Assembly: GCA_947624515.1 (NCBI GenBank)
Contig: CANQKN010000004.1
Location: forward strand, 1 to 42,211
DNA from: an uncultured Bacilli bacterium
GTDB lineage: Bacteria; Bacillota_I; Bacilli_A; RF39; UBA660
Length of the DNA stretch: 42,211 bases
Direction of reading: 5' to 3'
Shown here piece by piece: positions 32,900-34,265 of the stretch. Each line of letters opens with the position of its first letter. The stretch's first letter is position 1. A model generated the notes under the pieces. It was not told where the DNA came from. It was given only the letters and a program-made list of their open reading frames with translations, and did no database searches. The position numbers and the translations under genes are program-made.

Positions 32900-33664
32900 T
32901 TATACAATTTGTCTATTTAAAAAATAATCATTTAACACTTTCTTTTCACTGTAAAGATCCTGATGATATACAAAATAATGATAATAATCTCTTTTCATTT
33001 GTTTGAAAGAAGAAATAGTTTTTATCTTATGAAAAGGATAATTATTAAAATATCGTTCTATTAAAAATTTCTGAAAATAATAATCTGCTAATCCTATTTC
33101 TTTATATATTTTCGTTCCTAATAAAATTATAATGAAAAAGTAAAGTAAATTCCAATGAAATATCAAAATAGAAAAGGAAATTATACTATAACTTAAAATA
33201 CTAAAATATAAAATGACTTTCAGACTTTGATAATATGAAAAGATAGAAGCTAATAATAAATTTACTAATCTACCACCATCTAATGGATAAATAGGTAACA
33301 GATTAAATATTAAAATAAACATATGATAGTGATAGAAATAAAGAGGAACATCTATCTTTTCTAACCATACTATAAGTGTAAATATACATTGTGTTAAAGG
33401 ACCCATAATTAATACTAGCCATTCTTTCCAAAGAAAAATATTAATATCATATTTTAATTTGCTACATCCACCATATGGATAAATTTCTATTTTTTCTACT
33501 TGAAGATGAAGTATTTTGGCAGTAATAAAATGACCAAACTCATGAACTATAATTAATAAAGTAAAATAAAATAAATTTCTAAAATGACCCGTAAAAAAAC
33601 TAAGAAAAGCTAAAACATAAAATAAAGGATGGATATAAACTTTAGCTAAGATATTCTTGATAAT
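32900..33664 (-). CDS. spoIVFB: SpoIVFB-like M50 intramembrane metalloprotease, AUU start
   Basis: Site-2-protease family; in Bacillus it cleaves pro-sigma-K. From the only plausible start the protein has 254 aa: KVYIHPLFYVLAFLSFFTGH matches the B. subtilis N-terminus; HEFGH is at 41-45 (43-47 in B. subtilis), and NLLPIYPLDGG at 121-131 gives the third metal ligand Asp129. Between the upstream TAG (33665-33667) and Met87 (33404-33406) there is no ATG, GTG or TTG. ATT 33662-33664 has AGGAG at 9 nt, inside the end of spoIVFA. A call from Met87 would lose HEXXH. Overlaps spoIVFA by 23 nt. Start codon inferred. Confidence 0.75.
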   Translation of the reverse strand: MIKNILAKVYIHPLFYVLAFLSFFTGHFRNLFYFTLLIIVHEFGHFITAKILHLQVEKIEIYPYGGCSKLKYDINIFLWKEWLVLIMGPLTQCIFTLIVWLEKIDVPLYFYHYHMFILIFNLLPIYPLDGGRLVNLLLASIFSYYQSLKVILYFSILSYSIISFSILIFHWNLLYFFIIILLGTKIYKEIGLADYYFQKFLIERYFNNYPFHKIKTISSFKQMKRDYYHYFVYHQDLYSEKKVLNDYFLNRQIV

Positions 33665-34241
33665 CTAAAAACTCTCCTGCTTTTTGATAGTATAAATACA
33701 TTTCCCCACTAGTAGCTTCTCCTAACAAACTCCCCTTTTCTATATAATCATAAATTTTGATATTACTATTTTCTACACCTACATACCATAAATCAATACC
33801 ATTTACTTGTTGAATAATAATCGTTTTGCCATAGTTATCTTTATCTCCGATAAATACTACAATGCCACTTTCTAACACAGGGACCAAGTAATTTGGTCCT
33901 ACTGTTAGTTTTACTCCTTCTTTATAAGATTCTTTACTATCATAAATTAATTGTTCATCAAAAACAGGAATGGTATTTGTATTTAATTGCGAAAGAGGAA
34001 AAATACTACCAAAATATTTTTCATAGACATTGTTTATTTTTGCAAAAGAAAGATTGGTATGATATACATTTTTATGAATCCATTCTTTAAAACTAGGATT
34101 TATTTTCATAACACTTAAGCAACCTAATAATAAAACAATTGATAATAATAATTTATTTAGAATAGTAATTGCTGTTTTATGAATTGACGGTTTGTGCTTT
34201 GTCTTTGCTAAATATTTTTGTATTGACTTATATTCTTCCAT
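33642..34241 (-). CDS. spoIVFA: SpoIVFA-like membrane protein with degenerate M23/LytM domain
   Basis: Likely regulator or scaffold of the SpoIVFB-like protease. Seen: basic N-terminus with Lys-rich segment, one membrane helix (about residues 27-45), linker, and a C-terminal LytM-like beta domain (about 110-195). M23 metal ligands are gone: the GKTIIIQQVNGIDLWYVG strand has Gln for the first His, and the usual HLHFE is MYLYYQ. B. subtilis SpoIVFA has the same build. 199 aa from ATG 34241 (AGGTG at 8 nt; ATG 34247 is also possible). The gene order mreC-mreD-spoIVFA-spoIVFB supports the name. Confidence 0.75.
   Translation of the reverse strand: MEEYKSIQKYLAKTKHKPSIHKTAITILNKLLLSIVLLLGCLSVMKINPSFKEWIHKNVYHTNLSFAKINNVYEKYFGSIFPLSQLNTNTIPVFDEQLIYDSKESYKEGVKLTVGPNYLVPVLESGIVVFIGDKDNYGKTIIIQQVNGIDLWYVGVENSNIKIYDYIEKGSLLGEATSGEMYLYYQKAGEFLDYQEYLS
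33662..33678 (-). promoter_or_regulatory. spoIVFB: SD and AUU start site of spoIVFB
   Basis: AGGAG at 33674-33678, 9-nt spacer containing an in-frame TAG, then ATT at 33662-33664. It is embedded in the last codons of spoIVFA. The stop just before ATT rules out a start further upstream in this frame. Confidence 0.6.
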
Positions 34242-34265
34242 TTTCATATCACCTAGTAATTTTTA

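What the first reader, a model, noticed from the sequence alone, without database searches (positions are those of the whole stretch)
33404..33678. spoIVFB appears to start at AUU; its HEXXH half is hidden from gene callers
Seen: from the TAG at 33665-33667 to Met87 (33404-33406) the frame has no ATG, GTG or TTG, yet it encodes the full SpoIVFB N-terminus including HEFGH. ATT 33662-33664 has an AGGAG SD at 9 nt. The first metal ligand is at residue 41 from this start, against 43 in B. subtilis. Known: AUU starts occur in infC and pcnB of E. coli, where IF3 discriminates against them. Inference: a low-level, tightly controlled start, or a +1 shift from spoIVFA at its CTT AGC TAA end (CUU to UUA slip).
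Basis: partly seen in the sequence, partly recalled or inferred. Interest (0 to 1): 0.7.

Follow-up and report, generated by a model that had tools for sequence, protein, structure and literature searches.

The report
Spore protease gene lacking normal start
A gene for a spore-making protease in an uncultured bacterium, and the same gene in dozens of its relatives, has no normal start codon and most likely begins at a rare one (AUC, AUA or AUU), so gene-finding programs would miss the half that carries its active site.

Summary
In the window, spoIVFB has no ATG, GTG or TTG between the in-frame TAG (33667-33665) and Met87. The hidden stretch carries HEFGH, is under purifying selection and aligns with solved B. 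subtilis SpoIVFB. The same junction lacks a standard start in 13 of 15 genomes of the genus that carry the gene, and in 57 of 182 loci surveyed in the family; 21 of those 57 have none anywhere before HExxH. In the window that codon is ATC (33661-33659); elsewhere it is ATA, ATC, ATT or (one genus) ACG. It changes because the overlapping end of spoIVFA changes from Tyr-Glu to Tyr-Lys/Gln. Best reading: near-cognate AUH initiation with an SD inside spoIVFA, probably coupled to spoIVFA translation; AUC at the ancestral ATG position is somewhat likelier than the AUU before it. A +1 frameshift has no conserved slippery site and conflicts with membrane topology. infC in the same genus also appears to start at AUA or AUC. 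This is a new, family-wide member of a known kind; translation itself is unmeasured.

The parts
33642..34247 (-). spoIVFA (M23/LytM-like domain); its 3' end overlaps the start of spoIVFB in another frame and carries the SD; TAA stop at 33644-33642
   Evidence: ORF; Peptidase_M23 E 8e-9; conserved C-terminal motif in relatives
33674..33678 (-). Shine-Dalgarno-like AGGAG inside spoIVFA, 9 nt before ATT and 12 nt before ATC
   Evidence: sequence; AGGAG or AGGGG in nearly all genus members; pairing energy
33665..33667 (-). in-frame TAG that closes the spoIVFB frame upstream
33662..33664 (-).
   Evidence: ATT in 46 of 57 start-less loci, ACT, GTT or AAT in the rest
33659..33661 (-). ATC at the position where relatives have ATG: preferred start codon
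   Evidence: ATG 57 and TTG 9 in loci with a normal start here; ATA 39, ATC 14, ATT 1, ACG 3 in start-less loci; ATC in 13 of 13 start-less genus members
32900..33664 (-). spoIVFB, 253-254 aa intramembrane metalloprotease, stop included
   Evidence: Peptidase_M50 E 1.8e-16; PDB 8vjl E 1.1e-22
33530..33544 (-). HEFGH zinc-binding motif, upstream of the first standard start
   Evidence: HExxH in 57 of 57 start-less loci
33404..33406 (-). Met87, first ATG/GTG/TTG of the frame; a standard caller would start here and lose HEFGH
   Evidence: 168 aa ORF

Best explanation
Full-length SpoIVFB is made by initiation at a near-cognate AUH codon inside the 3' end of spoIVFA, most likely AUC 33661-33659 (the ancestral ATG position) and otherwise AUU 33664-33662. 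An SD (AGGAG) inside spoIVFA positions the ribosome, and ribosomes finishing spoIVFA about 20 nt downstream probably initiate or reinitiate there. The AUG was lost because a spoIVFA codon whose first base is the third base of the spoIVFB start codon changed (Tyr-Glu to Tyr-Lys or Tyr-Gln). The SpoIVFB frame stayed under selection, so a weak start was kept instead of the gene being lost. Shown: absence of standard starts, recurrence, position of the ATG in relatives, purifying selection, intact catalytic motif. Inferred: initiation at AUC or AUU, coupling to spoIVFA, low yield, IF3 sensitivity.
For: No standard start before HEFGH. Same state in 13 of 15 genus members and 57 of 182 family loci, 21 with none before HExxH. 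ATG or TTG at the ATC position in 66 relatives; all 20 loci from other families of the class have a standard start near the N-terminus. Codons 10-86 under purifying selection (dN 0.03, dS 0.28 for L031/L032; dN 0.25, dS 1.9 for window/L134). SD in spoIVFA, predicted pairing stronger in start-less loci. infC of the same genus apparently starts at ATA (10) or ATC (3) after GGAGGTG. AUU and AUA starts are established in S. aureus (PMC13009471).
Against: No ribosome profiling, peptide or reporter data. The recurrent nucleotides are also explained by the spoIVFA protein motif, so they are not independent evidence of a start. The test for constraint on the codon's middle base is borderline (p 0.05) and the SD difference is not significant on independent pairs. 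AUC is 12 nt from the SD, longer than usual. One genus has ACG at this codon. Anti-SD assumed, since no 16S gene is in the assembly.
Confidence: 0.85

Rival explanations
1. Start at AUU 33664-33662, rather than AUC 33661-33659; otherwise the same mechanism.
For: 9 nt from AGGAG, the more usual distance; ATT in 46 of 57 start-less loci and in 13 of 13 start-less genus members; the ACG genus keeps ATT.
Against: ACT, GTT or AAT in 11 of 57 start-less loci; ATG or TTG of relatives sits one codon downstream at the same SD distance.
Confidence: 0.35
2. Programmed +1 frameshift near the end of spoIVFA makes a SpoIVFA-SpoIVFB fusion.
For: The genes overlap and spoIVFB is in the +1 frame of spoIVFA.
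Against: No shared slippery site: the last spoIVFA codons and the stop position vary between relatives, and CTT AGC TAA of the window is not conserved; the window has CAA where other start-less loci have AAA, so even an AAA-G slip is not shared. The junction RNA folds no better than shuffles (z 0.03 and 1.84). SpoIVFA's C-terminal domain lies in the intermembrane space (cleaved there), while the SpoIVFB N-terminus is cytoplasmic (own knowledge).
Confidence: 0.05
3. spoIVFB is decaying or truncated: only the Met87 product without HExxH is made, the gene is a pseudogene, or an assembly error removed the start.
For: First standard start is Met87; the genome is a small draft assembly of 1.02 Mb.
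Against: Purifying selection upstream of Met87 and HExxH kept in 57 of 57 start-less loci; same junction in independent genomes and in a second collection (L031, L032); substrate and regulator genes present.
Confidence: 0.04

Closest known systems
Bacillus subtilis SpoIVFB (PDB 8vjl, 8vjm; PMC11486902)
   Same: Protein family, HExxH, neighbour spoIVFA, pro-sigma-K partner encoded in the genome
   Different: The window protein is shorter (about 254 aa against 314 aa of the 8vjl chain) and its gene lacks a standard start codon
S. aureus infC (AUA), cvfC1 (AUU) and ccpN (AUA) starts (PMC13009471)
   Same: Near-cognate AUH start with an SD, conserved between species, in Bacilli
   Different: Those were mapped by profiling and reporters and have extended SDs at normal spacing; here the start lies inside an overlapping upstream gene, the codon varies between species and nothing is measured
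E. coli infC and pcnB AUU starts (PMC9410913)
   Same: AUU-type start expected to be weak and sensitive to IF3
   Different: Different genes; no overlapping-gene cause and no intramembrane protease
Streptomyces sigR GTC start (PMC5472188)
   Same: Non-canonical start conserved across a genus in a sigma-factor pathway, with a strong RBS
   Different: GTC or GTT rather than AUH; acts on the sigma factor itself, and IF3 repression was shown

Membership tests
SpoIVFB (site-2 protease, M50) | HExxH plus a downstream Asp motif in an M50 domain | tested here: met
   HEFGH at 41-45 and PLDGG in the translation; Pfam M50 60.6 bits against a cut-off of 27.2
SpoIVFB (site-2 protease, M50) | Sequence relation to solved SpoIVFB | tested here: met
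   8vjl E 1.1e-22 over residues 5-217
SpoIVFB (site-2 protease, M50) | Next to spoIVFA, with pro-sigma-K and SpoIVB in the genome | tested here: met
   BofA only as a weak candidate
SpoIVFB (site-2 protease, M50) | Cleaves pro-sigma-K | not testable with these tools
   needs an assay
Genes with near-cognate start codons | Conserved coding frame without ATG, GTG or TTG at its N-terminus | tested here: met
Genes with near-cognate start codons | SD at usable distance from the proposed codon | tested here: met
   AGGAG 9 nt from ATT and 12 nt from ATC; energies
Genes with near-cognate start codons | Initiation shown at that codon | not testable with these tools
   no profiling or peptides available
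Genes with near-cognate start codons | Output reduced relative to AUG and responsive to IF3 | not testable with these tools
   needs reporters
Programmed +1 frameshifting | Conserved slippery site at the shift point | tested here: not met
Programmed +1 frameshifting | Stimulatory RNA structure | tested here: not met
   z-scores 0.03 and 1.84 in the window; relatives not folded

The most novel reading that the evidence does not exclude
In a large family of uncultured Bacilli, the sigma-K checkpoint protease SpoIVFB has repeatedly lost its AUG through changes in the overlapping gene for its own inhibitor SpoIVFA and is kept at a near-cognate start. SpoIVFB would then be made only by rare, IF3-sensitive initiation on an mRNA being translated for its inhibitor, which would hard-wire an excess of inhibitor over protease and link sigma-K activation to the IF3 level.
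Probability: 0.3. Interest if true: 0.7.

Novelty: new member of a known kind. Interest (0 to 1): 0.5.

Why it matters
It adds a developmental gene, start-less in many genera, to the short list of bacterial genes that appear to begin at near-cognate codons, and shows how an overlapping gene can remove an AUG without killing the downstream gene. Gene callers limited to ATG, GTG and TTG would report this protease as truncated or without its active site, which could bias surveys of sporulation genes in uncultured Bacilli (such as PMC10868615; whether its calls are affected was not tested).

Tried and rejected
Base error or assembly artefact: rejected by recurrence in independent genomes. Start downstream of the overlap: rejected, the first later standard starts are scattered and 21 of 57 start-less loci have none before HExxH. 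Upstream ATG with stop read-through (ATG GGA AGT ATT TAG in some relatives): rejected, that codon is CAG in the window and AAG in others. +1 frameshift: rejected (topology). Synonymous-site test of start-codon constraint: p 0.011 at first, 0.05 with more genomes, so only suggestive. SD compensation: clear without phylogenetic correction, not significant on independent pairs. 16S for the true anti-SD: none in the assembly. Rfam match upstream of infC: none. Papers on the spoIVFB start codon or a non-AUG start: nothing relevant found.

Full report
What is there. The minus strand carries spoIVFA (34247-33642) and, overlapping its end in another frame, spoIVFB. Counting from ATT 33664-33662, SpoIVFB has 254 residues and its stop ends at 32900. 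Between the in-frame TAG (33667-33665) and Met87 (33406-33404) there is no ATG, GTG or TTG. A standard ORF search sees only the 168-aa C-terminal part. The hidden part holds HEFGH at residues 41-45. The whole frame matches Peptidase_M50 (E 1.8e-16), and residues 5-217 align with the solved B. subtilis SpoIVFB (8vjl, E 1.1e-22), whose zinc ligands are H43, H47 and D137 (PMC11486902). SpoIVFA carries the M23/LytM-like domain.

Is it more than chance? One 40-codon stretch without a standard start has a probability of about 0.24 at this codon make-up, so the window alone proves little. Recurrence does. Of 15 genomes of the genus with the gene, 13 have the same junction (a GGAG- or GGGG-type SD, stop, ATT ATC) with no standard start near it. 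Among 182 loci of the family, 57 have none at or before codon -29 from HExxH, and 21 have none at all before HExxH. Two caveats: loci were fetched roughly in order of similarity to the window, so 31% is not an unbiased rate, and L133 duplicates L032. All 20 loci from other families of the class have a standard start near the N-terminus. On the tree the start-less state is clustered but needs at least 10 changes on well supported branches (16 in all; 14 on the earlier tree). It was therefore gained and/or lost several times, and it is kept through a large clade that includes the window.

Is the hidden part translated? Between the close relatives L031 and L032, codons 10-86 show dN 0.03 and dS 0.28; between the window and L134, dN is 0.25 and dS 1.9. 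That is at least as constrained as codons 87-254. HExxH is present in 57 of 57 start-less loci. The genome also encodes sigma-K with an apparent pro-sequence, aligning from residue 7 with the pro-sigma-K chain of 8vjl, SpoIVB above cut-off and a weak BofA candidate. The pathway in which SpoIVFB acts is therefore encoded.

Where does translation start? In start-less loci the same codon is ATA (39), ATC (14), ATT (1) or ACG (3, all one genus). The change follows from spoIVFA: its C-terminus typically reads L-N/D-Y-E-x-Y in ATG loci and L-D/N-Y-K/Q-x-Y in start-less ones, and the third base of the spoIVFB start codon is the first base of that Glu, Lys or Gln codon. The simplest family-wide reading is that the ancestral AUG position is still used; in the window that is AUC 33661-33659. 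AUU 33664-33662 remains possible: its distance from AGGAG (9 nt) is more usual than that of AUC (12 nt), and the ACG genus may need it. Other relatives that lost the ATG have a different standard start nearby (ATG at -45, TTG at -41 or -42, ATG at -38).

How it probably works. The SD lies inside spoIVFA and the spoIVFA stop lies about 20 nt downstream of the start, so ribosomes finishing spoIVFA could initiate or reinitiate there (inference). Predicted SD pairing is stronger in start-less loci than in loci with ATG or TTG at this codon (mean -7.5 against -5.4 kcal/mol, p 8e-6). That comparison ignores relatedness and is not significant on independent pairs, and a generic Bacilli anti-SD was assumed because no 16S gene was found in the assembly. 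Constraint on the start codon's middle base is only suggestive (p 0.05). Support from the same genus: infC has GGAGGTG, 6 nt, then ATA in 10 genomes and ATC in 3, although an ATG or TTG overlapping that SD cannot be fully excluded as its start. infC starts at AUA in S. aureus by profiling, where AUU and AUA starts give about 10-30% of AUG (PMC13009471). In E. coli infC and pcnB start at AUU (PMC9410913), and in Streptomyces a conserved GTC start of sigR is repressed by IF3 (PMC5472188).

Rivals. A +1 frameshift would need a shared slippery site near the spoIVFA stop. The last codons and the stop position vary, the window's clade has CAA where others have AAA, and the RNA folds no better than shuffles. 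A fusion would also join SpoIVFA's C-terminal domain, cleaved in the intermembrane space, to a SpoIVFB N-terminus that is cytoplasmic (own knowledge). Pseudogene, truncation and base error are contradicted by selection and recurrence.

Verdict. This is a new member of a known kind, notable for its taxonomic breadth and its cause in an overlapping gene. No translation data exist, so initiation, coupling, yield and IF3 control are inferences.

Noticed in passing
L150:779-830 (G000 contig C38) and L224-L235: infC of this genus appears to start at ATA (10 genomes) or ATC (3 genomes) after a conserved GGAGGTG, another AUH start in the same lineage. An ATG or TTG overlapping the SD is also present in frame.
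   Followed up: partly
L007, L048, L052, L101, L107 and other relatives: Several relatives that lost the spoIVFB ATG have a different in-frame start inside spoIVFA (ATG at -45, TTG at -41 or -42 from HExxH), giving longer N-termini: a second evolutionary route round the same loss.
   Followed up: partly
L045, L186, L194 (genus g71): Three species of one genus have ACG at the start position, preceded by ATT, with no standard start nearby.
   Followed up: no
L151: sigK encodes a short hydrophobic N-terminus before YSNNVFPEPL, resembling the cleaved pro-sequence of B. subtilis pro-sigma-K.
   Followed up: partly
G123, G034, G135, G112, G170, G007 and others: Some family members show an in-frame stop inside the spoIVFB match, possibly decay or match overrun past the gene end.
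   Followed up: no
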